From: Cryobacterium psychrophilum
GTDB lineage: Bacteria; Actinomycetota; Actinomycetes; Actinomycetales; Microbacteriaceae
Length of the DNA: 64,000 nucleotides
Assembly (NCBI RefSeq): GCF_004365915.1
Contig: NZ_SODI01000001.1
Location: 496,001-560,000, forward strand
Reading direction: 5' to 3'
The position numbers and the translations under genes were made by a program. Positions 24,816 through 64,000 of the stretch are shown in pieces; the stretch's first letter is position 1, and each line of letters starts with the position of its first letter. The notes beneath the pieces were generated by a model. It made no database searches. It was not told the DNA's origin and saw nothing but the letters and a program-made list of their open reading frames with translations.

Positions 24816-24834
24816 TATACCCTATGGGGGTATG
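24816..24834. promoter_or_regulatory. CsoR-like copper operator
   Basis: TATACCCTATGGGGGTATG is a pseudo-palindrome of the ATACCC...GGGTAT type, identical in plan to the box before copB. It lies 84 bases upstream of the frameshifted secreted-protein gene (minus strand). The leader between box and start resembles that of the DUF3105 gene at 50 kb. Confidence 0.7.
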
Positions 24835-25268: not shown

Positions 25269-25526
25269 ATGTACGGATGGGGCGGCGACAGCTGGGGAAT
25301 GACCGGCTGGATCATAATGGCAGTGTTGATGGTCTTGTTCTGGGGCGGCGTGATCACCGTCATCATCGTGGTTCTGCTGCGGCGCCCGCACTCCGATCAA
25401 GGAACGAACGCGGTGCGCCCCTCGCACCATCAGGCGGAGGTCATTCTGCACGAGCGTTTCGCCCGCGGAGAGATCGATGAAACCGAATACCTCACCCGTC
25501 GCACCGCTCTTCGCCGACCGGAATGA
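25269..25526 (+). CDS. SHOCT-domain small membrane protein
   Basis: An 85-residue protein with a Trp/Gly N terminus (YGWGGDSWG), one membrane span (WIIMAVLMVLFWGGVITVII) and a C-terminal SHOCT motif (LHERFARGEIDETEYLTRR). SHOCT proteins are small adaptors often found in metal-resistance loci. GGAGG 8 bases upstream supports ATG 25269. Its stop overlaps the ATG of the cupredoxin gene (ATGA), so both are made together. Confidence 0.85.
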   Translation: MYGWGGDSWGMTGWIIMAVLMVLFWGGVITVIIVVLLRRPHSDQGTNAVRPSHHQAEVILHERFARGEIDETEYLTRRTALRRPE

Positions 25527-26104
25527 CGACCGCTCGAAAGTGGTCGACCGGGGTGTGGGTGATCGTCGGGATTCTGGCCACGGTGTTGCTCACCGGGTTG
25601 TCCCTGGTGACGGTCGGCCTCCTGGGCGGCGGGTTCACAGCTGGCGGGCCCGGATCGCGGTCCGGGGACTGCGCGGTGCCGAACCTCTCGGGAACGGTCG
25701 TGAACGTCACCACGACGGACATGGGCGGGCCCATGATGGGCGGAGGCCACGGTCCATGGCCCGGTGCCTCCATGCGATTGCGCGCCGACCGGGCCACTGT
25801 TGAACACGGGACGGTGTCGTTCCTCGTGACGAACAGGGGCAACATCACTCACGAGATGGTTGTTCTGCCCCTTCCCGACTCTCACATTGTGGGCACACGA
25901 GCAATCGCTGGCGACCAACAGATCGACGAAGCGGGCAACCTGGGCGAGGCATCCAACACCTGCGGTGACGGCGGGGGCGAGGGAATCCTGCCCGGAACCT
26001 CAGGCTGGATGACCGTCACCCTGAAGCCGGGCCAGTACGAGTTGGTCTGCAACCTCCCCGGTCACTACGCCGCCGGAATGTACACACAACTCACCGTCAC
26101 CTGA
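25523..26104 (+). CDS. membrane-anchored cupredoxin (plastocyanin/sulfocyanin-like)
   Basis: A 193-residue protein with one N-terminal membrane anchor (VIVGILATVLLTGLSLVTVG), a Gly/Met/His linker (DMGGPMMGGGHGPWPG) and a blue-copper fold. The type 1 ligands are visible: His in NRGNITHEMVVLPL, then Cys, His and Met in ELVCNLPGHYAAGMYTQL. It should act outside the membrane as an electron carrier or copper buffer. It is translationally coupled to the SHOCT protein and sits in the copper island. No heme or Fe-S partner is adjacent. Confidence 0.85.
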   Translation: MTTARKWSTGVWVIVGILATVLLTGLSLVTVGLLGGGFTAGGPGSRSGDCAVPNLSGTVVNVTTTDMGGPMMGGGHGPWPGASMRLRADRATVEHGTVSFLVTNRGNITHEMVVLPLPDSHIVGTRAIAGDQQIDEAGNLGEASNTCGDGGGEGILPGTSGWMTVTLKPGQYELVCNLPGHYAAGMYTQLTVT

Positions 26105-27520: not shown

Positions 27521-27539
27521 GGTACCCCCTAGGGGTACC
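27521..27539. promoter_or_regulatory. CsoR-like operator, copZ side
   Basis: GGTACCCCCTAGGGGTACC is a near-perfect palindrome in the copZ/csoR divergent gap, just upstream of copZ. It is the most symmetrical of the boxes in this window. Confidence 0.75.
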
Positions 27540-27584: not shown

Positions 27585-27902
27585 ATGAATGAATCCACCG
27601 AAACGGAGACTGCGCCCCATCAGCACGGGTACATCTCCAACAAAGATGGTTACCGAAAGCGCCTGCGCCGTATCGAGGGACAGGCCAGAGGCCTGCAGGG
27701 CATGGTGACGGACGAGAAGTACTGCATCGACATCCTGACCCAGATCTCGGCGATGACCAACGCCCTCCAGTCCGTCGCACTGGGCCTTCTCGACGATCAC
27801 CTCAACCACTGCGTCGTCGACGCTGCCGCAGCCGGCGGCGAAGAGGCAGACCTCAAGATGCGGGAGGCCTCGGCCGCCATCGCCAGGTTGGTGCGTTCGT
27901 AA
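27585..27902 (+). CDS. csoR: copper-sensing repressor CsoR
   Basis: All-helical repressor of 105 residues in the DUF156 family (RLRRIEGQARGLQGMVTDEK). The Cu(I)-binding triad is intact: Cys in DEKYCIDIL, then His and Cys in LLDDHLNHCVVDAAA. Cu(I) binding should release it from GTAT-flanked C/G tracts, which occur upstream of many genes in this window. The start ATG is immediately downstream of its own operator. The second csoR at 51453 is ruined, so this copy is probably the sole regulator encoded here. Confidence 0.92.
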   Translation: MNESTETETAPHQHGYISNKDGYRKRLRRIEGQARGLQGMVTDEKYCIDILTQISAMTNALQSVALGLLDDHLNHCVVDAAAAGGEEADLKMREASAAIARLVRS

Positions 27903-29170: not shown

Positions 29171-30673
29171 GTGAACAATTCCCTTACTCGCCGCACCTTT
29201 CTGGGCGCGACCCTGGCCACAGCCACCACGGCGGCTCTCGCCGCCTGCGCCACCCCATCGCCCTCACGGGGCGTCACCCGGATCTTGGCAACGGATCCGA
29301 TGGTGGGTCGGTTTGAGGACCGTCGCACGGCTTCGGGCAGAATCACTACTCAACAGCTCACCGCAGGAGCCTTCGACACCACCGTGTCCGGAATGGCGCT
29401 GGCGACCTGGGGCTACAACAACGCGCTCAACGGGCCCGTCATCCGCGCACGCACCGGTGACCTGCTCGATGTGGCGGTGACGAACAACCTTAACGAGGCG
29501 ACGAGCATTCACTGGCACGGCCTGGCTCTACGAAACAACGCCGACGGCGTACCCGGTGTCACCCAGAAGGCCATCGCCGCTGGAGCCGATTCCAGCTACA
29601 AATTCCGGCTTACCCACCCTGGAACCTACTGGTACCACTCCCATGTTGACATGCAACGCGAACGAGCGCTCTCGGGTGCGCTGGTGATTGAGGACCCGAA
29701 CGAGGCACTGAGCTACGACCAGGAATGGGTCATCGTCCTTGATGATTGGCTGGACGGTATCAGTGGCAGGCCCGAAGGGGTGCTGGCCAGGCTCGCTGGC
29801 GGCATGGACATGTCCGGCATGAACATGAGCGAGTCGCCCATGCTCATGGGTTCCTCCAGCGCATATCTGGGCGGGGATGCCGGCGACGTAAGAATGCCCG
29901 CCCACCTCTTCAACGGCAAGACAGCGACTGAACCGGAAATTTTCCCGAGCAAGCCGGGGAACCGGATCCGTTTGCGGATTATCAATGCTTCCGGGGACAC
30001 CGCTTACCGTGTCGGGGTGCCCGGACGGAAAATCGCCCTCACCCATGCCGACGGCTTCCCGGTGAAACATGTCGATGTCGACGCCGTCGTCCTCGGGATG
30101 GGCGAACGAATCGATGCCATCCTCACGGTCACTGACGCGTTCACACCGCTGATGGCACTTCCGGAAGGAAAAGACGGATCGGCGTGGGGACTGATCAATG
30201 CAGGCGGCGCTGGCGCAGCTCCGCAGGCGTCCAGTCTTCCCTCCAGCCTGGACGGGGTCGTCACGGATGGTGGACGACTCAAGGCCGACGAAAGCGTGAT
30301 TCTGAACGCCCAGTCCCCCGACCGGATTCACACAATGCGCCTCACCGGGTCTATGGACAACTACAGCTGGGGAATCAACGGCAATATGTTCAATCCGGAC
30401 CGACCATTTGCGGACGCCTTTGATATCGCTGTGAATGAACGGGTTCAGGTGAAGATCATCAATGACACGTCGATGTGGCACCCGATGCACCTGCACGGAC
30501 ACTCCTTTCAAATCAGCGGTAACGGCGCGCGCAAGGACACCGTCATCGTGAGGCCGAAAGAAACCGTGACCTTCGAATTCGACGCGGACAACCCCGGGCA
30601 ATGGCTCACCCACTGCCACAACGCCTACCACGCAGCGAAGGGAATGATGGGCGTATTCTCGTACGTCCGATAG
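29171..30673 (+). CDS. Tat-exported multicopper oxidase
   Basis: A 500-residue three-cupredoxin oxidase that probably oxidises Cu(I) outside the cell. The N terminus has a twin-arginine signal (NNSLTRRTFLGATLATATTA) and a possible lipobox at LAACA. Copper ligands are complete: HWHG near residue 115, WYHSHVDMQ, HPMHLHGHSF, and HCHNAYHAAKGMM, where the Cys and the last Met belong to the type 1 site. A Met-rich stretch (GGMDMSGMNMSESPMLMGSS) resembles the Cu(I)-binding segment of CueO. The start is GTG 29171 with AAGGA upstream. Confidence 0.93.
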   Translation: MNNSLTRRTFLGATLATATTAALAACATPSPSRGVTRILATDPMVGRFEDRRTASGRITTQQLTAGAFDTTVSGMALATWGYNNALNGPVIRARTGDLLDVAVTNNLNEATSIHWHGLALRNNADGVPGVTQKAIAAGADSSYKFRLTHPGTYWYHSHVDMQRERALSGALVIEDPNEALSYDQEWVIVLDDWLDGISGRPEGVLARLAGGMDMSGMNMSESPMLMGSSSAYLGGDAGDVRMPAHLFNGKTATEPEIFPSKPGNRIRLRIINASGDTAYRVGVPGRKIALTHADGFPVKHVDVDAVVLGMGERIDAILTVTDAFTPLMALPEGKDGSAWGLINAGGAGAAPQASSLPSSLDGVVTDGGRLKADESVILNAQSPDRIHTMRLTGSMDNYSWGINGNMFNPDRPFADAFDIAVNERVQVKIINDTSMWHPMHLHGHSFQISGNGARKDTVIVRPKETVTFEFDADNPGQWLTHCHNAYHAAKGMMGVFSYVR

Positions 30674-33879: not shown

Positions 33880-36048
33880 TCAGCGGCTCTGGACCAAGGT
33901 AGCTGGAGCCTTCGTGCCGTGAACCCCCAGCGCGGCGGCGACGCTGGCTTCGGGACTGAGATCGAGCCGGCGGAGCAACTGCGCGTTCAGCGCCACCACA
34001 ACCGTCGAAGCTGACATCAGAAGTGCGCCAACTGCCACCGGGAGCACGAAACCGATGGGGGCCAAGACCCCCGCCGCCAGCGGAACGGAAATGAGGTTGT
34101 ACCCGGCAGCCCACCACAGGTTCTGCTTCATCTTTCGGTAGCTGGCCCGCGAGAGTTCAATGACCGAAAGCACCGAGCGTGGGTCGTCGCTAGCCAGGAT
34201 GACGCCGGCCGAGGCAATGGCAACATCGGTACCGGCGCCGATGGCGATCCCGACGTTCGCTTGCGCCAAAGCCGGAGCGTCATTGATACCGTCACCGACC
34301 ATGGCGACCTTGCGACCCTCGCCCTGCAGCTCGGCGACCTTGGCTGACTTGTCTTCCGGGTGCACGCCGGCGAAAACCCGGTCGATTCCCAACTCCGCCG
34401 CGACAGAGTGAGCGACGGCTTCGGCATCGCCGGTGATCATGACCACTTGAATTCCTCGGGCGTGCAAGGCATCCACCGCTTGACGGGATTCCTCACGAAC
34501 CTCATCCTCCAAACGAAGGGCTCCGATCACCTCGCCGTCGGCGAGTACGTGCAGGATGATGGCGCCTTCATCGGCCCATCCCTTCGTCACACTGAGCGGC
34601 TGGGCATCGTGGCTCCGGAGCAGGCTCGGCCCGCCGACGCTTACCCGCTGACCGCCAACCTGAGCTTCGACGCCGATCGCCGCAGATGCCTGAAAGCCGG
34701 TTGCGCGGGGCACGTCGTAGCCGCGGGATTTTGCGCCCGCCACGATGGCTTTGGCCAGCGGATGCTCACTGTCTGACTCAACAGCAGCGGCCAGGGCAAG
34801 AACGCCAGCTTCCGTCTGGCCAGCCACGACCGATATTCCCGACACTGCCGGTTCGCCCTTGGTCAACGTCCCTGTCTTATCGAAGAGCACTGTATCCACC
34901 AGACGCATGCTTTCCAAGGCCAAACGATCCTTGATCAACACGCCGCCCTTGGCCGCCCGCTCTGTTGAGATGGATACGACAAGAGGAATGGCCAGGCCCA
35001 AGGCGTGGGGGCACGCGATCACCAGGACGGTGATCGTGCGAATGACCGCGTCGTCGCGGTTCGCGAGAAGGCTCCAGGCAATCGCGGTGAGCACAGCAGC
35101 TCCCAGTGCAAACCAGAAAAGCCAGCCGGCGGCGGTATTGGCAACCCCCTGAGCCTTGGATGTCGAGTTTTGCGCCTCGCTGACCAGGCGCTGGATGCCG
35201 GCCAATGCGGTCTCGTCGCCGACGGCAGTCACCCGAACGCGCAATGCGGTGTCGGTGGCAACGGTTCCAGCGACGACTCGGGAGCCCGGACCGCGGCTTA
35301 CCGGTTTCGATTCCCCGGTGATCATCGATTCGTCGACATCGGCGGTCCCCTCCGTGACTTCGCCGTCGGCGGGGACCCGACCACCCGGTCGCACAACCAC
35401 GAGGTCGCCGACAGTGAGCTCGGACGGTGACACTACGACGACCTCGTCACCGTCGAGCCGTTCCGCCTCATCGGGCAGAAGCGCGGCCAGAGATTCGAGC
35501 GCGGTCGAGGTCTGAGCCAGCGATCTCATCTCGATCCAGTGGCCCAGCAGCATGATCACGATCAACAGCGCCAGCTCCCACCAGAAGTCCAGCTCCTGGT
35601 CGAGAAACCCCAGGCTCGCGCCCCAGGAGGCAACGAACGCCACAGTAATTGCCAGCGCGATGAGAAGCATCATTCCGGGCTTGCGGCCTTTTAGCTCTCC
35701 AACTGCGCCGCTTAGGAAGGGGCGCCCGCCCCAGACGTACATGACCGTACCGAGAACAGGCGAAATCCACGCAACCCAGGAAACGGCTGGAAGCGGGTAG
35801 CCGAGAATGTTCGCGAACATGCCGCTGAATCCGACAACCGGTGCTCCGATTAGAAACATCACCCAGAACAACCGCCGGAAGATGGCGACGTGATCGCCGT
35901 GGCCCGCATGGCCGCCGTGATCGCCCTCGCCGTGGCCCGATGCCGCCGGGTTCATCCTCGAATGGTCGCTCATCGACTTGTCACTCTGGTCATCGTTGTC
36001 GGCAGTAGGCGATGGCCGAAAATTCTGGTGCTCGTGATGGTCACTCAT
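33880..36048 (-). CDS. copB: CopB-type copper-translocating P1B-ATPase (CPH motif)
   Basis: A 722-residue P-type ATPase. The N terminus is His-rich (DHHEHQNFRPS, HGEGDHGGHAGHGDH) instead of an HMA domain. Further motifs are TGESKP, the membrane metal site CPHALGLAIPLV, the phosphorylation motif DKTGTLTKGEP and GDGINDAPALAQANVGIAIG. CPH plus a His-rich N terminus marks the CopB subclass, which exports copper, possibly Cu(II). It is preceded by a CsoR-type box 11 bases upstream of the chosen ATG 36048. Since copA is deleted, this is the only intact copper pump in the window. Confidence 0.93.
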   Translation of the reverse strand: MSDHHEHQNFRPSPTADNDDQSDKSMSDHSRMNPAASGHGEGDHGGHAGHGDHVAIFRRLFWVMFLIGAPVVGFSGMFANILGYPLPAVSWVAWISPVLGTVMYVWGGRPFLSGAVGELKGRKPGMMLLIALAITVAFVASWGASLGFLDQELDFWWELALLIVIMLLGHWIEMRSLAQTSTALESLAALLPDEAERLDGDEVVVVSPSELTVGDLVVVRPGGRVPADGEVTEGTADVDESMITGESKPVSRGPGSRVVAGTVATDTALRVRVTAVGDETALAGIQRLVSEAQNSTSKAQGVANTAAGWLFWFALGAAVLTAIAWSLLANRDDAVIRTITVLVIACPHALGLAIPLVVSISTERAAKGGVLIKDRLALESMRLVDTVLFDKTGTLTKGEPAVSGISVVAGQTEAGVLALAAAVESDSEHPLAKAIVAGAKSRGYDVPRATGFQASAAIGVEAQVGGQRVSVGGPSLLRSHDAQPLSVTKGWADEGAIILHVLADGEVIGALRLEDEVREESRQAVDALHARGIQVVMITGDAEAVAHSVAAELGIDRVFAGVHPEDKSAKVAELQGEGRKVAMVGDGINDAPALAQANVGIAIGAGTDVAIASAGVILASDDPRSVLSVIELSRASYRKMKQNLWWAAGYNLISVPLAAGVLAPIGFVLPVAVGALLMSASTVVVALNAQLLRRLDLSPEASVAAALGVHGTKAPATLVQSR

Positions 36049-36058
36049 AACGAGCAGA

Positions 36059-36080
36059 TTATACCCCCATAGGGTATGAG
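36059..36080. promoter_or_regulatory. CsoR-like operator of copB
   Basis: TTATACCCCCATAGGGTATG with core ATACCCCCATAGGGTAT at 36061-36077. It is the reverse-complement equivalent of the box at 24816 and lies directly before copB on the minus strand. Confidence 0.75.
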
Positions 36081-36128
36081 TCAAGTATCCGCGTTGACTG
36101 AGAAGAAACCTCCGCGGAGCTATATACG

Positions 36129-50986: not shown

Positions 50987-51364
50987 TTAGGGCTGGGCTA
51001 CCAACTCGTAGCCGGCTTCGTCGATCGCAGCGGCGACCACGTCACGGTCCAGCTCGCGCACGCTTGAAACTGTCACCCGAGAGAGCCCGCCGGAGACCAA
51101 GGCGACCTCCACATTGGTCGCGCCTTCGATCTGGTTCAGCTCCTCTGTCACGCTCTTCACGCAGTGCTCGCAAGTCATTCCAGACACCGCCCAGGTGCTC
51201 GTGATCCTGCCCGCGTCGGCACTGTCGGATGACGTTGCGGCTGCTTTCTCGTGCGTGGGGGTTCCGCACCCGCACGAGGATTCACTCACTGTCTCCTCTG
51301 CGTGGGTTCCGCACGCGCAGGAGGCGTCGGTCAGGCCGAGTTCGTTCTGGTTCATTGTGCACAT
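50987..51364 (-). CDS. copZ: CopZ-like copper chaperone, copy 2
   Basis: A 125-residue paralogue of 27117-27497 with the same layout: MCTMNQNELG, two Cys/His repeats (SCACGTHAEE and SCGCGTPTHE), then a heavy-metal-associated domain with MTCEHC. Most differences are conservative, so it is probably functional. It is divergent from a csoR relic and preceded by two CsoR-type boxes. Its stop lies inside the end of the IS1380 remnant; the mini-copA that follows copy 1 is absent here. Confidence 0.88.
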   Translation of the reverse strand: MCTMNQNELGLTDASCACGTHAEETVSESSCGCGTPTHEKAAATSSDSADAGRITSTWAVSGMTCEHCVKSVTEELNQIEGATNVEVALVSGGLSRVTVSSVRELDRDVVAAAIDEAGYELVAQP

Positions 51365-51385: not shown

Positions 51386-51406
51386 CGAGTACCCCCGAGG
51401 GGTATG
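51386..51406. promoter_or_regulatory. CsoR-like operator, copZ2 side
   Basis: GAGTACCCCCGAGGGGTATG, the counterpart of 27521-27539. Confidence 0.7.
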
Positions 51407-51752: not shown

Positions 51753-52376
51753 ATGAGAACATCGCATCGACTGTTGGGCTCCCCTCGGCGCTCAGCCCAC
51801 GTTCACAACCGCACGTTGGCCGCTCGGACTGGCCGCCTTCTGGTCACCAGCCTGCTCTTGTCACTTTTTGCCGTGTTCGCTGTGGGGCAGCCCGCAAAGG
51901 CACATGGAGGCCAATCGGCAGACGAGGGCTATGTCATGGTTCAACAGGCATTGACCTATCTGGTCAATGAGCCCGGCCAGAGCGGCACGACCGAAGCCCT
52001 GATGAAGATAGACGCAGTCCTCACGGCGGAAGATCAGGACGGCGTCGATGTGGCCACGGTGACAGAGGCGAAAGCGGCGCTGCAGGCGGGAGATGCCGCA
52101 GCTGCTCGCGTTCTGCTGCAGGATTCCATCACGGAAGCAGTGAACGCACTTCAGCGCGCCGTCGCCCAACAAACCGGCACAAAAATCGTGCTGGAACCAT
52201 TTCCGTCACGAGGTCCACTCACAGTCACCGAATGGATGATTCTCGCGCTGTCAGCACTGGTCCTAGCCGTCGGCTTTGTGCTCGCGGTCAGGTTCCGACC
52301 CAGCGAAGGCCTGAGGGAGCTGGGACGCGACATCTCCGGTGCCAAGGGAATGCGCCACGAAGGGGGAGAAAAATAA
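51753..52376 (+). CDS. exported helical protein anchored by a C-terminal span, cytochrome b partner
   Basis: A 207-residue protein with a signal peptide (TGRLLVTSLLLSLFAVFAVG, cleavage near AKA-HGG), an extracellular helical domain (EGYVMVQQALTYLVNEPG, AKAALQAGDAAAARVLLQDS) and a C-terminal membrane span (MILALSALVLAVGFVLAVRF). Its TAA overlaps the ATG of the cytochrome b gene, so the proteins are co-translated and probably form one membrane complex. The family is not recognised; HGGQSAD at the mature N terminus could bind copper. Confidence 0.75.
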   Translation: MRTSHRLLGSPRRSAHVHNRTLAARTGRLLVTSLLLSLFAVFAVGQPAKAHGGQSADEGYVMVQQALTYLVNEPGQSGTTEALMKIDAVLTAEDQDGVDVATVTEAKAALQAGDAAAARVLLQDSITEAVNALQRAVAQQTGTKIVLEPFPSRGPLTVTEWMILALSALVLAVGFVLAVRFRPSEGLRELGRDISGAKGMRHEGGEK

Positions 52377-53473
52377 TGTCCACCAAAATCGACAACGGCC
52401 AACCGTCATCTGCCGCCGCCGAAACCCGCTCGTGGGGTCGAAAGATGTGGGATGTTATCGACGAACGCATGGGCATTTCGGCTCTCGCCTATCCGGTCCC
52501 GGAACACGCCAACCGTCTCGCCTGGACCCTTGGCGGGATCACCGCGGTGAGTTTCGTCCTGCTCATTGGGACAGGAATCGTTCTGTCCCAGTTCTATGCG
52601 CCGAGACCCGAAATCGCCAACCAGTCGGTGCGAGCGATCGAGTCAACTGACTGGGGCAGGCTGTTTCGCGGTGTCCATTTCTGGGCCGCACAAGCCATGT
52701 ATGTCGCAGCTGTGCTGCACTTGGTGCGAGTGTTTCTCTCTGGTTCCTATAAGAAGCCGCGCGAGGGGAACTGGCTCGTCGGAGTCGCGATGTTCGGACT
52801 TCTGACCTTTGCCATCTTTACCGGCACCATACTCAAATGGGATCAAGAGTCTTATGAGGCGTTGGGTCACAACCTCGAAATCGGCAACCTCCTGGGCGGG
52901 TTGGGATTTTGGTTTTCCCCCACGTTCTCCGACCAGGTTTCGATTCTTCTGCGCCTCTACGGCGCCCATGTGGTCATCCTTCCCGGTCTCATCCTCGTAC
53001 TCGTCATCCTGCACTTCCTGCTGGTCAAGCGGCACCACATGTCACCCCACCCCGCACTGCCGGTCGGCAAGTCGCATGAGCAAGCGGCAGCAGCAGAGCC
53101 CACTCAGCCCTTCACGCGACACATCCGCCGCTTGGTGGCATTCGGAATCGCGTTGACCGGAATTCTCGGAATCCTCGCAGTTCTTCTCCCAGCACCCATC
53201 GGTTCCACCGCGGTAGCGGGGATCGAAGTGACCAAGCCGCTCTGGATGTTCTGGTGGCCCTTCACTCTCGAGAACTGGTTCGGGCTGCCCGCGATCGGTT
53301 GGGGGGAAGCGGTCTTCTTCCTGCTGCTGGTAATTCTTCCCTTCGTTGATCGCTCCCCTCATCGGTGGTGGCGTCACCGTCCGGTCGCCATGACCATCGG
53401 CGCAATCGTCGCCTTGGCCCTCATCGCGCTGACCATCCTGATGTTGGTCATGCCGGCTCAGCAGCACCTGTGA
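52376..53473 (+). CDS. diheme cytochrome b (bc/b6-like) without a bc1 context
   Basis: A 365-residue membrane protein. The four heme-ligand histidines are in place: RGVHFWAAQAMYVAAVLHLV (two, 14 apart) and YGAHVVILPGLILVLVILHF (two, 14 apart), with GTGIVLSQFYAPRPE in helix A-B. The C-terminal part (KPLWMFWWPFTLENWFGLPA) lies where PEWY of the quinol-oxidising site normally is, but PEWY itself is absent. No Rieske protein or cytochrome c gene is adjacent. It is flanked and coupled to two small membrane proteins, so it may move electrons across the membrane in copper or thiol chemistry. The strong ribosome site is GGGGGAG. Confidence 0.85.
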   Translation: MSTKIDNGQPSSAAAETRSWGRKMWDVIDERMGISALAYPVPEHANRLAWTLGGITAVSFVLLIGTGIVLSQFYAPRPEIANQSVRAIESTDWGRLFRGVHFWAAQAMYVAAVLHLVRVFLSGSYKKPREGNWLVGVAMFGLLTFAIFTGTILKWDQESYEALGHNLEIGNLLGGLGFWFSPTFSDQVSILLRLYGAHVVILPGLILVLVILHFLLVKRHHMSPHPALPVGKSHEQAAAAEPTQPFTRHIRRLVAFGIALTGILGILAVLLPAPIGSTAVAGIEVTKPLWMFWWPFTLENWFGLPAIGWGEAVFFLLLVILPFVDRSPHRWWRHRPVAMTIGAIVALALIALTILMLVMPAQQHL

Positions 53474-56732: not shown

Positions 56733-57927
56733 GGCTCTCCTGACATAACCGTGGGTTAAACACGGCCGGGGAGAACGGGCCGATTCCCGCCGAGACTGAG
56801 CATGGCGAGGGCGATGAGGGCGTCCGGGGATTCGAAACCAAACGCGATGCGGGTGATGAGTCGGATCTTGGTGTTCATGGATTCGATGCGGCCGTTGGAG
56901 AGTCCGTGCTCGATGGAGGCGAGGATCGCAGGCCGGTGTTTGACGATGCTGCGTTGGAGTTTCACGAAGGCGGGGATGCGGCAGCGGCGGGCCCAACTGA
57001 CCCATTTATCGAGAGCTTCGGTTGCTTCGTCGAGGGGGAGCTGGAAGATCACCCGGAGGCCTTCTTCGAGGTAGTAGGCCCGGCCGAGGGTGGGGTCGGT
57101 CAAGCGAGCTTGACCTGCTGCTTCTCCGTGAGGTTTTCCGGGTTCTTCCAAAGTTCGTAACGCGAGTTCTTGAGACCTGCCGCTTGAGCACTATCGGGAC
57201 GCGGCGGCGCATCGGAAGCGGGGCGTCCACGGCCTCGGCTGCTTTCGTTGCGGCGGGCGGCTTTGCGGGCATCGTTCCAGGCGGTTCGGCGGACTTCGTC
57301 GAGCGCGTCCATGGCCCATTTCACTACATGAAACGGGTCCGCGCACCGCACTGCGTTGGGGCACTTCTGGGCGACGACAGTAGCGATCCAGGCCGCTCCG
57401 TCCGCGGAAACGTGGGTGATGAGGGCGGATCGTTCCGGCCCGAGCTCGTCGAAGAACCTAGCCAGGGTGGCTTTGTCTTGGCCCGGTTTGGCCCAGACGA
57501 GGCGGCCGCTGTCGTGGTCGACGACGACGGTCAAGTATTTGTGGCCGCGCTTGTAGGAGATCTCGTCGATGCCGATCCGGGTCAGGTCGGCGAACTGATC
57601 GTGGAGCTTGTCCGTGTCCGCCCAGACTCGGGTGATGATCGCTCCGACCGTGCGCCACCCGATGCGCATCAACACGGTGATGGCGGTCTTGGACGCTTGG
57701 GTGGCCAGCCAGGCGACCTGGGCGACCAGGACCCCGGATTCGACGTCGAGTTCCACGTCTTCCACGACCGTTTTCTCGACACCAAGCAGAGTTCGCCATA
57801 AGGTTGGTTTTCGCACGCCGTTTTCCTGTCTTAAAGTTTCTGTTCCTTCAACAGTCAGAAACCTAAGCGGAAAGCGGCGTGTGGCCGTTAAGGCGCTCCC
57901 AAAGACCCACGGTTATGCCACAAGAGC
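56733..57927. mobile_element. ISL3-family insertion sequence, defective
   Basis: Inverted ends of 24 bp (56733-56756 versus complement of 57904-57927, 21 of 24 identical; GGCTCT...CATAACCGTGGGT). They enclose an ISL3 transposase that has a deletion and a frameshift. No 8-bp target duplication is evident, so a flank has changed since insertion. Confidence 0.8.
56756..57816 (-). pseudogene. ISL3 transposase with internal deletion and frameshift
   Basis: The N terminus LWRTLLGVEKTVVEDVELDV jumps at about residue 28 directly to QVAWLATQASKTAITVLMRI, so roughly 55 residues containing the zinc-finger block are missing. The catalytic region (IGIDEISYKRGHKYLTVVVD, VSADGAAWIATVVAQKCPNA, DPFHVVKWAMDALDEVR) is present. 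At about 57105 the frame ends at VKLA-stop, while LTDPTLGRAYYLEEGLRVIF to the end continues in another frame to 56756. Not functional. Confidence 0.85.
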
Positions 57928-57970
57928 CTGATAACTTGTCCTTAACAGTGCGCGGTAACGAGGAGGACGG

Positions 57971-58321
57971 ATGTCGGCATACGTCAGCGTCGCAGTGATC
58001 CTCGGAATGGCACTGGCTGGAATCGGCCTGCTCTACCTCGTCGCTCGGGCAACGTCGGTGTGCCCGGAGCCGCTTACGACCACACCCTATCTGTCTGGGT
58101 GGATGCCGAAGGAGCACGCGCTCTCCCGCTTCCACGCTCGCTGGTATCCGCTCACCATCATCTTCCTCGCCTTCGACGTGGAGATGTTGTTCATGTACCC
58201 CTGGGCCGTCGTCGTAGCGAGCGAGGGTCCCACCGCGATCATCGAGATGTTCGTCTTCCTCGGGCTGCTCATGGTGGGCGTCGTCTGGGCTTGGCGAGAA
58301 GGCTCACTGAGATGGGTGTGA
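57971..58321 (+). CDS. nuoA: NuoA-like subunit (complex I membrane arm)
   Basis: A 116-residue subunit A with three spans. Its conserved loop includes FHARWYPLTIIFLAFDVEML and FMYPWAV; the acidic residues of FDVEMLF are typical. It heads a chain of seven overlapping or closely spaced genes. GAGGAGG lies shortly upstream of ATG 57971. The operon starts 44 bases after the ISL3 end, so its promoter may lie in or have been supplied by the IS remnant. Confidence 0.92.
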   Translation: MSAYVSVAVILGMALAGIGLLYLVARATSVCPEPLTTTPYLSGWMPKEHALSRFHARWYPLTIIFLAFDVEMLFMYPWAVVVASEGPTAIIEMFVFLGLLMVGVVWAWREGSLRWV

Positions 58322-59538
58322 CTTCTCTGCTCGCCCGGTGGGCTTCCACGAGCGTGCATGTTCTCATCGTGGAGGTGCCGGGCTGGGACGAATCAAGGAT
58401 GCTGCTCGAGGCCGAGCTCGACCGGCGTGGCTGGAGAGTCGCGCTCTCGCCGGCCGACGCGGACCTGCTCGCCGTCTGCGGGATGCCGGGGGAAGAACTC
58501 CGAGCGGTATCTGATCTTCTGTGGGATCAGTTGCCCGGACCGCGATCTCGTCTGAGCGTGACTTCCTCGGTCGCGTTGTCGGCACTGCTCGATGCCGCCG
58601 GGGCGCATCTCGTCGATGATTTCCGGCAGCGCGAGGACGCCCGGGCGAGGTCTCGCCCCGTTGCTGCCGAGGATCCGAGACCGGATGCCGGCGAGCACGA
58701 GGGCATGTCGCACGAGGACACGAACCACGGGGGCATGGACCATGGAGACATGGACATGGACATGGACATGGACATGGACATGGACATGCCGACGCCCGGC
58801 GGCATCCCCCTGGCCGGCGGAGGCGACGACCGCGACGGACTCGAGATGGACGTCCTCAACGTTCCGCTCGGCCCGGTTCTGCCCCACTGGCCGGCCGGCC
58901 TCGTGGTGGATTGCGTGTTGCAGGGCGACGTGATCGTGAGCGCTGCGGCCCGATTGCTCGAGGCGGCGTCGGCACCGAAGAGAGCGCCGACGAACACGGT
59001 GACGGATGTTCCGGGCGGGCGCCGGAGCATCATCCGACTCTGCGATGACGCCTCGAACCTGCTCGCCCTCGCCGGCTGGCAGACCGCCGCGCAGAACGCA
59101 CGCCGGTTGCGCGATGACGCACTTCGGAGAGCGGACATCACCGATCACGCCGCGGCCCTTGATCGGCTGCGCCGACGAGTCGAGCGCTCCTTGCTGCTGC
59201 GGTGGTCGCTCAAAGGGATCACGCTCGGAGGGATCGGCGTGGGCGCAGGCGAACGCGCGGACACGGGTACCGCGACTCCGCCTGACCAGGCGGCCGTCGT
59301 CATCCGTCATCGCCTGATCGGCTGGCTGCGGGAGGCCGCGGTCCTGGCCGGGACGTCCTCTGGTGCGCAATCGCCCATAGCGGGCGACTCCGACCGGGCA
59401 CGCCAGGCGCGGGACGCGTTCGCCGCCCTGCCGGAGCTGCTTCGCGGAGCGGATCTTGGAACGGCTCGCCTGCTCATTGCCGGCCTCGGTCTCGACACCG
59501 CCGCACTCGCCCAAACGCACGAGCGCACCCATGACTGA
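58312..59538 (+). CDS. NuoB/NuoD-like fused, cofactor-less complex I subunit
   Basis: A 408-residue protein starting inside the end of nuoA (10-base overlap). Residues 10-90 (HVLIVEVPGWDESRMLLEAE, DADLLAVCGMPGEELRAVSD, LLWDQLPGPRSRL) read as a degenerate NuoB-like fold without the four cluster cysteines. Residues 135-160 are a Met/His/Asp-rich linker (HEGMSHEDTNHGGMDHG then seven Asp-Met). Residues 175-400 (LEMDVLNVPLGPVLPHWPAG, LVVDCVLQGDVIVSAAARLL) recall NuoD. It occupies the position of nuoBCD. It probably seals or couples the proton-pumping arm to an unknown donor. Homology is inferred from pattern and position. Confidence 0.7.
   Translation: MGVTSLLARWASTSVHVLIVEVPGWDESRMLLEAELDRRGWRVALSPADADLLAVCGMPGEELRAVSDLLWDQLPGPRSRLSVTSSVALSALLDAAGAHLVDDFRQREDARARSRPVAAEDPRPDAGEHEGMSHEDTNHGGMDHGDMDMDMDMDMDMDMPTPGGIPLAGGGDDRDGLEMDVLNVPLGPVLPHWPAGLVVDCVLQGDVIVSAAARLLEAASAPKRAPTNTVTDVPGGRRSIIRLCDDASNLLALAGWQTAAQNARRLRDDALRRADITDHAAALDRLRRRVERSLLLRWSLKGITLGGIGVGAGERADTGTATPPDQAAVVIRHRLIGWLREAAVLAGTSSGAQSPIAGDSDRARQARDAFAALPELLRGADLGTARLLIAGLGLDTAALAQTHERTHD
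58747..58788 (+). repeat. GACATG hexamer repeat, seven units
   Basis: Seven perfect GACATG units coding (Asp-Met)7 within the 408-residue NuoB/D-like gene. The tract is prone to length change without frameshift and adds potential Cu/Ag-binding methionines. Confidence 0.9.
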
Positions 59539-60466
59539 GCCCATCGTGCAGGTCAGCCCGGCGTGGGCGGTTCTGGCGCCGCTCGCCCTCCTGCTGTTCG
59601 CGCTCGCGGGAGCCAGCCTGAACGGTGCTCTCATCGCTCGGTCGGTCGGTCGCCCGTTCCGTTCCGGAGCGAGCGCCCCGCTCGCCGAGGTGGCCCGGCT
59701 GCTGCGACAGCGTCGACAGGTCACCGTCGCGGCCGATGTGCTGCTGTGGCGGATCGGTGCCGGCGGTCTCGTGGTCGTCGCCATTCTGAAGATCCTGGTC
59801 ATCCCGCTCGGGCCGTGGACCCTCGCCGACCTCGACGTCGGCGTCGTCTGGTTCAACACGATGGACGTCATGATCTGGGCGCTGTTCTGGCTCATCGGCT
59901 GGGGCGCGAACAGCGCGCACGCGCTCATCGGGGGCTACCGTTTTCTGTCGCTCGCCGTCTCCTATGAGCTGCCGCTGATGTTCGCGCTGATCACGCCAGC
60001 GGTCGCCGCGCGCAGCCTCCGGGTCGGCGACGTGGTCGCGGCCCAGCACGACCTGTGGTTCGTGATCTGGATGCCGGTCGCCTTCGTCATCTTCTGCGGC
60101 AGCGTTATCGCCTTCTCGAGTTGGGGTCCGTTCGCGACGGGGGCCGGGCGGGACATCGCGGGCGGTTTCCTCGCCGACGTCTCGGGCGTGGACCGGCTGC
60201 TGCTCCTCACCGGCCGCTACGCGGTGCTCACCGCGGGTGCCGCGTTCGCCGTGCCGCTCTTCCTCGGCGGCGGAGACGGCGCGCTGTTGCCCGACTGGCT
60301 CTGGACGATCGTCAAGACGGCGCTCGTGCTCGCGGTCTTCGTCGCGATCCGTCACCGGGCGCCGACGATCCGCCCCGACCGGTTCGCCGAGGTGGCCTGG
60401 ATCATCGTGTTGCCAGCGGCGCTGCTGCAGGTGCTTGTCGTCGCGATCATCGTCGTGGGGAGCTGA
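59531..60466 (+). CDS. nuoH: NuoH-like subunit
   Basis: A 311-residue quinone-site membrane subunit, eight spans, with the NuoH order (NGALIARSVGRPFRSG near the start, WALFWLIGWGANSAHALIGG, YRFLSLAVSYELPLMFALIT, and a C-terminal transmembrane pair). The E of SYELP is the conserved helix-5 acidic residue; the loop usually rich in acidic residues facing NuoD is shorter. It overlaps the preceding gene by 8 bases. Confidence 0.88.
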   Translation: MTEPIVQVSPAWAVLAPLALLLFALAGASLNGALIARSVGRPFRSGASAPLAEVARLLRQRRQVTVAADVLLWRIGAGGLVVVAILKILVIPLGPWTLADLDVGVVWFNTMDVMIWALFWLIGWGANSAHALIGGYRFLSLAVSYELPLMFALITPAVAARSLRVGDVVAAQHDLWFVIWMPVAFVIFCGSVIAFSSWGPFATGAGRDIAGGFLADVSGVDRLLLLTGRYAVLTAGAAFAVPLFLGGGDGALLPDWLWTIVKTALVLAVFVAIRHRAPTIRPDRFAEVAWIIVLPAALLQVLVVAIIVVGS

Positions 60467-60471
60467 GAACA

Positions 60472-61032
60472 ATGATCGACATCCTGTTCTGGGCGCTCGC
60501 GGTCGTGTCCGTGGCATCCGGCGCCGCCGTCTTCGTGGTCAACTCGATGGCGCGGGCGACCTACGCGCTCGCGGTCTCGTTCATCGCCGTCGGCATCATG
60601 CTCGTGATGGTCGGTCTCGAGTACATCGGCATCATCACGATCCTCATGATGGTGATGGAGATGGCGATCATGGCCGTCTACATGGTGATGTATATGGGCA
60701 TGAATCCGGCCCTCATGCCGATGGATATGACGCACAACAAACGCTGGTCGGCGGTTCTGGCGGGGGGAACCTTTGTGCTGCTGGCCGCGGGAGCCCTTCT
60801 CATCCCGTGGCCCGCCCGCGTCGGTGCCCCCGCAGTTGACCTCACCGCCTCGCTCGGCGAGGCGCTCATGGGGCCCAAGATGCTTGCGATGCTTACCATT
60901 AGCCCCGTGCTGTTCGCCACGATCATCGCCGGGCTCGTGATCGCCAACCCGCGCGGGCGGTACGACCGCTGGGGCGACAACCTGAAGCGCGACACGCCCG
61001 ACGATCCGATGCGGGGAGGGCTGGGCCGATGA
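60472..61032 (+). CDS. nuoJ: NuoJ-like subunit
   Basis: A 186-residue subunit with five spans (MARATYALAVSFIAVGIMLV, GLEYIGIITILMMVMEMAIM). The pi-bulge helix region GLEYIGIITIL corresponds to the conserved TM3. A Met-rich stretch (YMVMYMGMNPALMPMDM) follows it, unusual for NuoJ. The gap to nuoH is 5 bases and the stop overlaps nuoK. Confidence 0.88.
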   Translation: MIDILFWALAVVSVASGAAVFVVNSMARATYALAVSFIAVGIMLVMVGLEYIGIITILMMVMEMAIMAVYMVMYMGMNPALMPMDMTHNKRWSAVLAGGTFVLLAAGALLIPWPARVGAPAVDLTASLGEALMGPKMLAMLTISPVLFATIIAGLVIANPRGRYDRWGDNLKRDTPDDPMRGGLGR

Positions 61033-61331
61033 CACTCCAGGCCGTTCTTCTCGTCGCCGCCGCACTGTTCTGCGTCGGCCTCTTTGGTGCGCTGTCCCAA
61101 CAGGTGGTCGTGATGGTCATGATGGGGCTGGAACTCATGTTGAACGGAGTCATCCTCGCGGCCGGCGCCTTTTGGTGGTTTCTCGCTCCCGCCCCGGACG
61201 GCCAAGTGCTGCTGCTCATCGTGATCGCCGCGATGACGGTCGAGATGGCGATGGGCTTCGCCGTCGCCACTCTGCTGCACCGTTCCCGCGGATCAGACAT
61301 GACCGACTCGGCGACGGACCTCTCCGGATGA
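61029..61331 (+). CDS. nuoK: NuoK-like subunit
   Basis: A 100-residue, three-span subunit with the conserved glutamate in MMGLELMLNGVILAAG and the second in AAMTVEMAMGFAVATLL, both used in proton transfer. It overlaps nuoJ (ATGA) and nuoL by 4 bases each. Confidence 0.92.
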   Translation: MTLQAVLLVAAALFCVGLFGALSQQVVVMVMMGLELMLNGVILAAGAFWWFLAPAPDGQVLLLIVIAAMTVEMAMGFAVATLLHRSRGSDMTDSATDLSG

Positions 61332-63259
61332 GCGGGCTCTCCCTCGCCCTCGTGGTACTGCTGCCCGCGGCATCCGGCATCTCCCTCTGCCTCGCCGGGC
61401 CACGTGCACGTGCCGCGGCGATCCCAGTCTCACTCACGACCGCGACCGTCACGGCTGCGCTCTCCGTGGTCGTTGCCGTCACTCGCCCCGCACTCGAGAT
61501 CCCTTTCATCGCCGGCGCGCCGGTCGGGCTCGCGATCGACGGGCTCTCCGCTTTCGTGCTTCCCTTCGTCGCGATTATCACCCTGCTCGTGCTGATCTTC
61601 GCGGCCGCTGAGGGAACGGAGTCGCCTGAACGCTTTCACGGCCTCATGCTCATTTTCGCCGCCGCCGTCGCGATGACCGTCACCGCGACGACACTCCCAG
61701 CGCTTTTGTTCGCGTGGGAGATCATGGGGGCCATGTCCTGGGCACTGATCGGCTTCCAGTGGCGGGATGACCGACGCGTACAGGCGGGGCTCGTCGCCTT
61801 CACGATGACGAGGGCTGGCGATCTCGGCCTGTACCTCGCCGCGGGCGCCGCCGTGATCGGCGGCGCGGGTCTTGGGCTCGCCGATCTGTCCGCCGCGTCC
61901 TCGCCCTGGCGAGACGTCATCGCGGCCGGCCTCATCATCGCCGCCCTCGGCAAGGCCGCGCAACTACCGTTCAGTTCCTGGCTGTCACGCGCGATGCAGG
62001 GTCCGAGCACGGTCAGTGCCCTATTGCACTCGGCCGCGATGGTGGCGATGGGCGGCTACTTACTGCTCCGCGTGGCGCCGCTGCTTCAGACGACGAGTTG
62101 GGCGGGCCTGACCGTGGCGTGGATCGGAGCGCTCACCGCACTCTTGCTCGGAGCGGTTGCGGTGGCGCAACGCGACCTCAAGCAGCTACTCGCGGCATCG
62201 ACCGCGGCCCAGATGGGTTTCGTCGTGCTCGCCGCAGGGGTCGGATCGATCGCGGGCGGTGCGGGCTATCTCGTTGCACACGCATCCACCAAGGCGCTGT
62301 TGTTTCTCGTCGCCGGCGCCTGGCTCGCCGCGCTCGGCACAAAAGCGCTGTTCGCCCTTCGTGGTGCCGCGCGCCGCTGGCCGCTCGTCGGCGCCCTGTT
62401 CTCCGTGGGGTTACTCTCCCTCGCCGGTATCGCGCCGCTGTCGCTCTGGGCGCTCAAAGACGAACTGCTCGCCGTCGCCCTGGAGACGAGCCCCGTGCTC
62501 TACACCGTCGGCCTCACCGCGGCGGCACTCTCCGCAATCTACTCCGGCAAGGTGCTCTTCATCGTCTGGGGAAGAGCGGATGCCGCGACCGAAGCGGGGT
62601 ACGACGCCGAACAGCCCGGCACGCGGCACATCGGTCGGTGGGAACGCATCCCGCTCATCGTGCTCGCGGCCGGCGCGGCACTGCTCGGAATCCTGGCGTT
62701 GCCCCCGGTGAGCGAGCCGCTGAAGGCGATGCTGGGAGAGACCGGCACCGCGGCGCCGGGCATGTTCGAGCTCGCCGGTTCGGCCGCGCTCGCGCTCGCT
62801 ATGCTCGCCCTCGTCGCATTCGGACTCCGACGAGGTCTGCCGCAACCAGCCTGGGCGGCGAACTGGCTGGGTCTCGAGAAGGCCATCCATCTCCTCGTCG
62901 TGCGTCCGACGCTCGCACTCAGCGAGTTGCTCGCGAGATTCGACGATGGCATCCTCGACCGCAACCTGCATCGGCTGGCGCGCGCCGGCGCTGGCGGCGC
63001 ACGTCGGCTCGGGTGGTTCGACGACGCCCGGCTCGACGCCACTGTCGAGGCGACGGCGCGAGCGGGCACACTCGCGGGCTCGCGCGCGGCGCGCGCCGAC
63101 ATCCGGGGCATCGATGGTGCCGTCGAGGGCCTCGCCCGCCAGCTGGGACGCCTCGGCACGCTGGCGAGGCGCCCCCAGACCGGCCGGATCCACCAGTACT
63201 ACGCCCAGATCGCGATCGCCTTGGCGGCCGTCTTCGTCCTGATCCTTCTCGTGAGGTAA
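61328..63259 (+). CDS. nuoL: NuoL-like antiporter-type subunit
   Basis: A 643-residue proton-translocating subunit. Motifs: LFAWEIMGAMSWALIGFQWR (Glu of TM5), KAAQLPFSSWLSRAMQGPST (Lys of TM7) and SALLHSAAMVAMGGYLLLRV, with a long C-terminal amphipathic region and last span (YAQIAIALAAVFVLILLVR). These show that the pumping machinery is intact. Four-base overlap with nuoK; nuoM follows after 3 bases. Confidence 0.93.
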   Translation: MSGLSLALVVLLPAASGISLCLAGPRARAAAIPVSLTTATVTAALSVVVAVTRPALEIPFIAGAPVGLAIDGLSAFVLPFVAIITLLVLIFAAAEGTESPERFHGLMLIFAAAVAMTVTATTLPALLFAWEIMGAMSWALIGFQWRDDRRVQAGLVAFTMTRAGDLGLYLAAGAAVIGGAGLGLADLSAASSPWRDVIAAGLIIAALGKAAQLPFSSWLSRAMQGPSTVSALLHSAAMVAMGGYLLLRVAPLLQTTSWAGLTVAWIGALTALLLGAVAVAQRDLKQLLAASTAAQMGFVVLAAGVGSIAGGAGYLVAHASTKALLFLVAGAWLAALGTKALFALRGAARRWPLVGALFSVGLLSLAGIAPLSLWALKDELLAVALETSPVLYTVGLTAAALSAIYSGKVLFIVWGRADAATEAGYDAEQPGTRHIGRWERIPLIVLAAGAALLGILALPPVSEPLKAMLGETGTAAPGMFELAGSAALALAMLALVAFGLRRGLPQPAWAANWLGLEKAIHLLVVRPTLALSELLARFDDGILDRNLHRLARAGAGGARRLGWFDDARLDATVEATARAGTLAGSRAARADIRGIDGAVEGLARQLGRLGTLARRPQTGRIHQYYAQIAIALAAVFVLILLVR

Positions 63260-63262
63260 CCC

Positions 63263-64000
63263 ATGCTCAGCCTTGTTGTTTTCCTCCCCGTGCTCGCCGC
63301 GATCGTGCTCGCGGCCATGCCTCGCATCGCGGATGCCGCTGCCCGCTGGATCTGGCTTGTCGTCACGCTCCTCGACCTCGCCCTCGTGGTCGGCCTGTGG
63401 CTGGCCTACCGAGATCCCGGTGCGGGAAGCCTGGCCTTCGAGGAGCAGCTGCCGTGGATCCCGAACGTCGGCAGCAGCTATCACCTCGGCCTCGACGGCC
63501 TGTCGCTGCCGCTGGTCGCGCTCACCGCGCTCATCTTCGTCGTCTGCGCCGTCTTCGCGCTCCGCGACACTGACCGGCCCCGCTCGCAGGCTGCCCTCTT
63601 CCTCTTCCTCCAGACGTCGAGCCTCGGTGTCTTCGCGGCGCAGGACCTCATCCTCTTCTTCGTCTTTTTTGACCTCTCGATCGTCGGCATGTACTTCGTG
63701 ATCGCCGGTTGGGGGCACGGCCGAGCGTCCCGATCGGCGCTGAAGTTCTTCCTCTACACTTTCCTTGGCTCGCTCGTGCTGCTCGTCGGGTTCATCGGCC
63801 TCTACCTGGGTTCGGCTGCGAAAACCTTCGACATGGCCCTGCTCGCGGCATCCCCTCCCTTCGCAGACGACCCGGTCATCGGCGGTCTCGTGCTCGCCGC
63901 CGTCTTCATCGGACTCGCGATCAAGACGCCAACTTTCCCGTTCCATACCTGGCTGCCGCCCGCCCACACGGATGCTCCGGCGATCGGTTCGGTCGTGCTG
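63263..64000 (+). CDS. nuoM: NuoM-like antiporter-type subunit, 5' part
   Basis: The frame from ATG 63263 runs off the window at residue 246. It has GLDGLSLPLVALTALIFVVC, the conserved Asp helix (LILFFVFFDLSIVGMYFVIA, where most NuoM have Glu) and KTPTFPFHTWLPPAHTDAP (Lys, HTWLPDAH-type motif). NuoM is normally about 500 residues and would be followed by nuoN. Confidence 0.92.
   Translation, partial: MLSLVVFLPVLAAIVLAAMPRIADAAARWIWLVVTLLDLALVVGLWLAYRDPGAGSLAFEEQLPWIPNVGSSYHLGLDGLSLPLVALTALIFVVCAVFALRDTDRPRSQAALFLFLQTSSLGVFAAQDLILFFVFFDLSIVGMYFVIAGWGHGRASRSALKFFLYTFLGSLVLLVGFIGLYLGSAAKTFDMALLAASPPFADDPVIGGLVLAAVFIGLAIKTPTFPFHTWLPPAHTDAPAIGSVVL

What the first reader, a model, noticed from the sequence alone, without database searches (positions are those of the whole stretch)
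57971..64000. A complex I membrane arm with a cofactor-less NuoB/NuoD-like adaptor in place of the redox arm
Seven tightly coupled genes encode A, H, J, K, L and M subunits with key pumping residues present. Between A and H, where nuoB-C-D normally lie, there is one 408-residue gene. Its N-terminal part resembles NuoB without the four cluster cysteines, and its C-terminal part resembles NuoD. No E, F, G or I gene is seen between A and M. The operon therefore seems to encode a pump or antiporter arm joined to a vestigial redox module. The energy source and partner are unknown.
Basis: partly seen in the sequence, partly recalled or inferred. Interest (0 to 1): 0.82.

Follow-up and report, generated by a model that had tools for sequence, protein, structure and literature searches.

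The report
Copper-linked complex I without redox arm
Some soil and marine bacteria carry a relative of the respiratory enzyme complex I that has lost its electron-carrying parts, gained a row of copper-loving methionines in its membrane part, and often sits among copper-defence genes, so it may be a proton-driven copper pump rather than a respiratory enzyme.

The parts
57971..58321 (+). NuoA-like subunit
   Evidence: Pfam PF00507 E 6e-26; Asp69 and Glu71 kept, as Asp or Glu, in 105 sequences
58312..59538 (+). X: cofactor-less NuoB-NuoD fusion, 408 aa
   Evidence: 1254 relatives at E up to 0.001 among 7994 scored
58354..58653 (+). NuoB-like part of X (residues about 15-114), no cluster cysteines
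   Evidence: PDB profile match to NuoB E 1.7e-5; Foldseek
58660..58800 (+). Met/His/Asp-rich linker of X (residues about 117-163)
   Evidence: 98 of 103 linkers found (of 105 sequences) have at least 4 Met+His, median 6 Met and 10 His; low pLDDT
58825..59514 (+). NuoD-like part of X (residues about 172-401)
59531..60466 (+). NuoH-like subunit, quinone cavity altered
   Evidence: Pfam PF00146 E 2e-43
60466..61032 (+). NuoJ-like subunit with methionine ladder
   Evidence: Pfam PF00499 E 6e-11
60646..60735 (+). Met ladder in TM3 of NuoJ and the Met-rich loop after it (residues 61-90, numbered from 60466)
   Evidence: M...M..M...M...M in 103 of 103 relatives, 0 of 20 canonical; helix 52-77 in the model
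61029..61331 (+). NuoK-like subunit with Met flanking the two conserved glutamates
   Evidence: Pfam PF00420; M.MM..E in 103 of 103, 0 of 20 canonical
61328..63259 (+). NuoL-like subunit, pumping residues kept
   Evidence: Pfam PF00361 E 1.5e-43
63263..64000 (+). NuoM-like subunit (runs on to 64753); NuoN follows at 64767-66191, outside the window
57100..57816 (-). ISL3-type transposase piece just upstream of nuoA
   Evidence: Pfam PF01610 E 6e-39
50987..51364 (-). CopZ-like copper chaperone
   Evidence: HMA domain over its Pfam cut-off; CopZ models below their cut-offs; operator match 51390-51404 just upstream
27585..27902 (+). RicR/CsoR-type copper repressor
   Evidence: NF052430 E 2.5e-44, 149.8 bits against a cut-off of 175
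29171..30673 (+). multicopper oxidase
   Evidence: Pfam Cu-oxidase domains over cut-off; TIGR01480 below cut-off
33880..36084 (-). copper-type P-ATPase
   Evidence: TIGR01511 E 1e-170, 569 bits, cut-off 397
25523..26104 (+). sulfocyanin/cupredoxin-like protein (weak match)
   Evidence: PF06525 E 7e-5
27523..27537 (+). perfect CsoR-operator match before the repressor gene; other perfect ones at 24818, 36062, 45253, 50088, 51390
   Evidence: 10 matches with up to 1 mismatch in the window, 0.68 expected, 0 of 100 shuffles as many

Best explanation
The eight genes encode a complex I-derived membrane machine that carries no electrons and handles copper. X sits where NuoB and NuoD normally sit, on the cytoplasmic face over NuoH and NuoA (inferred from homology), and gathers Cu(I) with its Met/His-rich linker (inferred). 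Cu(I) is passed to a methionine-lined path at the NuoJ/K junction, where ordinary complex I has its central water and glutamate channel (the ladder is shown; its use as a path is inferred). Protons flowing inward through antiporter-like subunits, chiefly L and M, whose lysines are kept, drive Cu(I) outward (inferred). Copper repressors of the CsoR type control some copies (operators shown at 20 of 109, regulation inferred), and neighbouring multicopper oxidases and cupredoxins deal with the exported metal (inferred).
For: No redox centre in X and no canonical NuoB, C, D or F in the own genome; two genomes with the operon (G001, G422) have no match at all to the NuoB, C, D or F families. Family-specific conserved Met: 15 in NuoJ, 4 in K, 2 in H, 3 in M, 1 in L, 0 in N (NuoA had no control); 11 of the 15 in NuoJ are also Met in both Halomonas and Roseivivax. 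The five-Met face of TM3 (62, 66, 69, 73, 77) is in 103 of 103 relatives and 0 of 20 canonical NuoJ from carrier genomes. Copper markers within 8 kb: 61 of 101 loci against 1 of 40 control regions; a marker gene within 400 bp upstream on the same strand of nuoA in 23 of 101. CsoR operators upstream of nuoA: 20 of 109 with at most one mismatch against 1.3 expected and 1 of 200 random windows, of the published consensus form (PMC3902906, passages). Of six Proteobacterial plasmid stretches read, five lie in copC-copD-copRS-copAB or cueR-CopA-MCO islands (two are near-identical copies in one Roseivivax strain) and the sixth could not be judged. Published: a similarly built cassette in Marinobacter is co-expressed with copper genes (PMC8233155, passages).
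Against: No biochemistry exists. The direction of transport, the ion, and whether the ladder crosses the membrane are not shown; no model of the assembled complex could be made, and the NuoJ model is of middling quality (pTM 0.54). 40 of 101 loci show none of the nine markers within the stretch read, and the Gordonia plasmid shows no copper gene within 14 kb. The operator is missing in 89 of 109 upstream regions, the own window among them. NuoN has lost its TM5 glutamate in 100 of 100 and has Glu for its TM7 lysine in 24 of 100, so one antiporter unit may not work as usual. Five of 103 X linkers have fewer than four Met+His. 26 of 29 carrier genomes searched do have a canonical NuoD.
Confidence: 0.5

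Rival explanations
1. Copper redox-driven ion pump: Cu(I)/Cu(II) chemistry at X or the ladder powers proton or ion pumping, as Eddie et al. 2021 suggested for Marinobacter.
For: Copper co-localisation and co-expression (PMC8233155, passages); L and M lysines kept.
Against: No electron acceptor site is apparent: the cluster cysteines are gone, the residue before the invariant Gly in the NuoD-like hairpin is mostly Ala, or Pro in the two Proteobacteria, and not His, and NuoH quinone-cavity acids are partly changed.
Confidence: 0.15
2. A copper-responsive PMF or ion-homeostasis device: Cu(I) binding to X and the ladder gates proton or cation movement, without carrying copper itself.
For: Same copper evidence; kinship of L and M to Mrp antiporter subunits (one search lists many such models).
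Against: A five-step ladder along a membrane helix is more than a sensor needs (judgement).
Confidence: 0.17
3. Sodium or proton pump for marine or osmotic adaptation, as published for Salinispora, Kocuria and Streptomyces.
For: Seen in marine isolates (PMC3314556, PMC6002675, PMC4018334, PMC6676996; passages).
Against: Named carriers include many Mycobacterium, Arthrobacter, Nocardioides and others that are not marine specialists (habitats recalled); copper context and ladder unexplained. One published carrier came from copper-rich mine fluid.
Confidence: 0.08
4. A redox pump that borrows a redox arm encoded elsewhere.
For: Most carriers searched also have a canonical NuoD: 26 of 29 genomes have a match at E below 1e-100.
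Against: G000, G001 and G422 have no canonical NuoD and no NuoF, and G001 and G422 have no NuoB or NuoC; X would occupy the docking place of NuoB/D (inference).
Confidence: 0.03

Closest known systems
Respiratory complex I (NDH-1), membrane arm
   Same: A, H, J, K, L, M, N all present in the usual order; lysines of L and M kept
   Different: One cofactor-less fusion in the place of B, C and D and no E, F, G or I between A and N; Met ladder in J and K; quinone-site and NuoN changes
Partial NDH-1 operon of Salinispora, Kocuria and Streptomyces (PMC3314556 Penn and Jensen 2012; PMC4018334 Ian et al. 2014; PMC6002675 Sun et al. 2018; PMC6676996 of 2019, first author Almeida recalled; passages)
   Same: Same genes by name; the 2019 paper even gives nuoA, a hypothetical protein, then nuoH to nuoN. 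I did not compare their sequences with the window.
   Different: There read as marine or osmotic adaptation; in the passages seen the second gene is not identified and no copper function is proposed
NuoADHJKL cassette of Marinobacter atlanticus (PMC8233155, Eddie et al. 2021; passages)
   Same: Complex I-like genes inside a copper resistance operon and co-expressed with it
   Different: Described as lacking nuoM and nuoN and perhaps driven by copper redox reactions; no Met ladder in the passages seen; sequences not compared here
Mrp cation/proton antiporters
   Same: Antiporter-like subunits without redox cofactors
   Different: Mrp has no NuoH, NuoA or NuoB/D part (recalled); this complex has them
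CusA copper efflux pump (recalled)
   Same: Methionine relay for Cu(I)
   Different: Unrelated RND protein

Membership tests
Respiratory complex I | Membrane subunits A, H, J, K, L, M, N | tested here: met
Respiratory complex I | NuoB with four cluster N2 cysteines | tested here: not met
   No tandem cysteine in the first 60 residues of any of 120 relatives; alignments
Respiratory complex I | NADH module NuoE/F/G in operon or genome | tested here: not met
   No NuoF in G000, G001 and G422; NuoE and NuoG families were not searched
Respiratory complex I | Quinone-ligating His in the NuoD hairpin | tested here: inconclusive
   The residue before the invariant Gly is mostly Ala, or Pro in two Proteobacteria, but one extra residue in the hairpin makes the register uncertain
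Ehr / group 4 hydrogenase-like complexes | NuoB-like subunit with FeS cysteines | tested here: not met
   an Ehr-like locus exists separately in the genome
Mrp antiporter | MrpA-G set without NuoH/A/B/D (recalled definition) | tested here: not met
   NuoH and NuoA present with a NuoB-NuoD fusion
Copper exporter (functional kind) | Cu(I) transport | not testable with these tools
   needs flux assay
CsoR/RicR copper regulon | Type 2 operator (TACCC-N5-GGGTA) before the operon | tested here: inconclusive
   20 of 109 upstream regions with up to one mismatch, far above chance, but absent in the other 89, the own window among them

The most novel reading that the evidence does not exclude
The first metal-ion exporter built from complex I: a redox-free complex I membrane arm in which the proton-motive force drives Cu(I) out through a methionine ladder that replaces the central channel of NuoJ/K, fed by a NuoB-NuoD fossil turned copper collector.
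Probability: 0.42. Interest if true: 0.95.

Novelty: new variant of a known kind. Interest (0 to 1): 0.85.

Why it matters
How complex I couples its redox arm to proton movement over a long distance is a long-standing question. A natural complex that keeps the membrane arm and the shape of the Q-module but has no electron carriers, and swaps the coupling channel for methionines, separates the two halves. If it moves copper, the coupling machinery can be run by an ion in place of a quinone, which can be tested by mutation and cryo-EM. It would also explain a widespread 'partial nuo operon' so far read mostly as marine or osmotic adaptation, and add a proton-driven copper exporter for Gram-positive bacteria.

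Tried and rejected
A missing redox arm just outside the window: rejected; NuoM and NuoN follow and the genome has no NuoF. Assembly or chance artefact: rejected by conservation in 101 loci. A borrowed canonical arm: rejected by G001 and G422. My first gene caller misread antisense ORFs of NuoL/M as genes, so I used tblastn. A first attempt to pull canonical NuoJ/K failed for most loci and was redone with canonical queries. Canonical NuoA could not be extracted, so NuoA has no Met control. The patterns tried for CueR sites before four Proteobacterial copies gave none. In the plasmid collection the Halomonas X matched only 8 records, one of them labelled Dysgonomonadaceae but with the length and match of a Martelella one, while the protein database holds 715 relatives at E up to 0.001; no Pfam match for the Roseivivax X. 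Foldseek alone gave no row at or under E 0.001. Paper searches; the Marinobacter paper was listed. The library holds open-licence papers only, without bioRxiv as a collection and without most subscription papers. I saw passages or named sections only, and no supplements.

Limits of the controls: the nine copper marker profiles were built from the same flanks that they then scored. Their identities were checked on one representative each: Pfam cut-offs were passed for DUF305 (both), HMA, Cu-oxidase, P-ATPase, DUF326 and CsoR; F510_1955 passed only NCBIfam; DUF6153 fell just under its Pfam cut-off (26.4 against 27.7); RicR (174.7 against 175), CopZ, Csp, CueO and the second CopM were under their NCBIfam cut-offs. 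F510_1955 and DUF6153 are not copper proteins by name; they were counted as markers because they recur with the others. The same profiles scored the controls. Of the 40 control regions, from 12 carrier genomes, 38 came from a seeded random draw; two on G000 were chosen by me as round numbers in place of drawn ones; two on G221 (L149, L161) overlap by about 9 kb. The loci include near relatives and are not independent, and 80 of them are the best 80 of 158. The two DUF305 markers overlap. Mean flank was 10 kb for loci and 16 kb for controls, which works against my reading. L002 holds only about 1 kb upstream of nuoA, so the window's own CopZ was not counted.
Full report
The observation. Pfam assigns NuoA, NuoH, NuoJ, NuoK, NuoL and NuoM. 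The genome stretch past the window shows NuoM ending at 64753 and NuoN at 64767-66191 in window numbering. The window belongs to a 3.68 Mb genome whose closest named relative in this operon is Cryobacterium algoritolerans (84% identity in X, 90-97% in the other subunits), so the genus is an inference.

The order is fixed. In 101 loci (L002 and L044-L143) A, H, J, K, L, M, N are complete and in order in 96, with X found in all 101; the other five stop at contig ends. In the class sample, 27 of 394 genomes hold a strong X match (E up to 1.5e-28); 23 further weak ones (E 3e-5 to 9e-4) mostly cover the NuoB motif and are probably true NuoB, not checked. In the own genus sample, 2 of 37 genomes have a matching NuoH (G000 and G001), so the operon is patchy. 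It is on plasmids: 16 actinobacterial records for X and 8 records for the Halomonas X. A NuoM tree sets the actinobacterial and proteobacterial copies together, apart from canonical actinobacterial NuoM, with support 100/100 (29 against 11 rows; no other outgroup).

No redox partner. The own genome has no NuoF, and its only NuoB, NuoC and NuoD family matches are in another locus, an Ehr-like one. G001 and G422, which carry the full operon (L061, L051), have no match to the NuoB, NuoC, NuoD or NuoF families. Most other carriers searched, 26 of 29, do have a canonical NuoD. So the complex cannot depend on a canonical redox arm in at least two genomes that are 99-100% complete. NuoE, NuoG and NuoI families were not searched.

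The methionine ladder. Orthologues were taken from 105 loci (100 to 105 per subunit) and set beside canonical NuoJ and NuoK from 20 stretches of carrier genomes. NuoJ holds 9.9% Met against 2.6%, NuoK 10.0% against 5.3%. The face M...M..M...M...M in TM3 is in 103 of 103 and 0 of 20; in NuoK, M.MM..E is in 103 of 103 and 0 of 20. A longer NuoJ pattern with an Ala is in 90 of 103; the other 13 were printed and keep the ladder with small changes, one shown only in part. Conserved family-specific Met number 15 in J, 4 in K, 2 in H, 3 in M, 1 in L and 0 in N, NuoA having no control; 11 of the 15 in J are Met in both Halomonas and Roseivivax. On an ideal helix residues 62, 66, 69, 73 and 77 fall within 80 degrees (a pi-bulge there would change this). 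The NuoJ model makes residues 52-77 one helix (pLDDT 73.4 overall, pTM 0.54). Two Proteobacterial NuoJ end in His-rich tails (Halomonas 7, Roseivivax 15 His in the last 60 residues; actinobacterial median 1). TM3 of NuoJ lies at the central channel of complex I (established knowledge, recalled), so the ladder replaces the coupling path. The pumping lysines of L and M are kept; NuoM has Asp for its TM5 Glu; NuoN has Leu or Phe there in 100 of 100, and its TM7 Lys is Glu in 24 of 100; NuoH Glu146 is kept in 100 of 104 and is Ile or Met in the two Proteobacteria.

Copper. Most of the families that recur most often within 8 kb of the operon are copper families: CopM/DUF305, CopZ, multicopper oxidase, copper P-ATPase, Csp-like storage protein, RicR/CsoR. 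One or more of nine markers occurs at 61 of 101 loci and 1 of 40 control regions; two or more at 48 and 1; three or more at 36 and 0. For the 21 loci taken from the own genome and the G-handle genomes the figure is 11 of 21. In 23 of 101 a marker gene lies within 400 bp upstream of nuoA on the same strand. Of ten plasmid stretches read, eight show copper or heavy-metal genes (L184, L185, L186, L187, L219, L220, L221, L223), one shows none (L222) and one is too poorly annotated to judge (L218). L187 and L219 are near-identical copies in one strain; in L185 the metal of the P-ATPase is not stated. In the own window a repressor, a multicopper oxidase, a copper P-ATPase and a CopZ-like protein are spread over 27-52 kb.

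Operators. The published CsoR type 2 operator is ATATACCCCTNAGGGGTATAT (PMC3902906, passages). Half-sites TACCC and GGGTA at 3-6 bp spacing occur upstream of nuoA with no mismatch in 11 of 109 and with at most one in 20 of 109, against 0.1 and 1.3 expected, and with at most one in 1 of 200 random windows. The window holds ten such sites (N5 spacing, up to one mismatch, six of them perfect) where 0.68 are expected. The own nuoA has none; an ISL3 transposase lies just upstream, and near relatives L065 and L064 carry a site with one and two mismatches about 80-100 bp before the gene, so the insertion may have removed it.

What is in print. Penn and Jensen 2012 described the seven membrane-arm genes in Salinispora as a partial NDH-1 for marine adaptation; the word copper does not occur in its main text (PMC3314556, passages). 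PMC6002675 and PMC4018334 repeat this for Kocuria and Streptomyces (passages). PMC6676996 gives nuoA, a hypothetical protein, then nuoH to nuoN, and reads it as osmoadaptation (passages). A 2025 survey counts 2171 species with incomplete complex I and nuo genes on plasmids in 57 species (PMC12361115, one section and passages). Eddie 2021 found a NuoADHJKL cassette inside the Marinobacter copper resistance operon, co-expressed with it, and suggested energy from copper redox reactions (PMC8233155, passages). Copper linkage is therefore not new for one organism. I found no paper on the NuoJ/K ladder or on X as a redox-free NuoB-NuoD fusion (searches; listings, and passages only of the papers named).

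Mechanism. Shown: the gene set, the loss of redox centres, the ladder, the copper neighbourhood, the operators. Inferred: that X binds copper, that the ladder conducts Cu(I), that protons drive it outward, that the purpose is detoxification. A copper-linked function of some kind I hold at about 0.9; proton-driven Cu(I) export at about 0.5. The NuoN finding made in the recount shifts the expected proton path towards L and M but does not change these odds.

Noticed in passing
L003:2087-9144 (G000:C1, about 190 kb downstream of the operon): A separate Ehr/Hyf-like complex: NuoB-like, NuoH-like and antiporter-like subunits and a NuoC-NuoD fusion with weak NiFe-hydrogenase similarity that by eye seems to lack the hydrogenase cysteines.
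   Followed up: partly
window 24818-51440: Ten CsoR-operator-like sites where 0.68 are expected: the window looks like a large copper island with a CsoR/RicR regulon.
   Followed up: partly
window 26314-27120: A CopA-like remnant: an HMA domain joined to the C-terminal end of a copper P-ATPase, the middle being absent. Described only.
   Followed up: no
window 57100-57930: An ISL3-type transposase just upstream of nuoA sits where near relatives have a copper-repressor-like site, so this copy may have lost its normal control.
   Followed up: partly
window 52376-53473 and 51753-52376: A b-type cytochrome resembling the selenite/tellurite ExtP family (below that model's cut-off) near CopZ, with an unknown protein before it.
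   Followed up: no
L221:13681-16248 (Martelella pMM259): The operon is broken after nuoA and part of X by an ISL3-family transposase, within an otherwise rich copper island.
   Followed up: no
window 18937-19905: An ArsA/GET3-like ATPase gene, possibly part of a second metal or metalloid resistance unit.
   Followed up: no
N subunits of the family, own copy L002:7767-9191: NuoN has Glu in place of its TM7 lysine in 24 of 100 relatives and no TM5 glutamate in any, an unexplained split inside the family.
   Followed up: no
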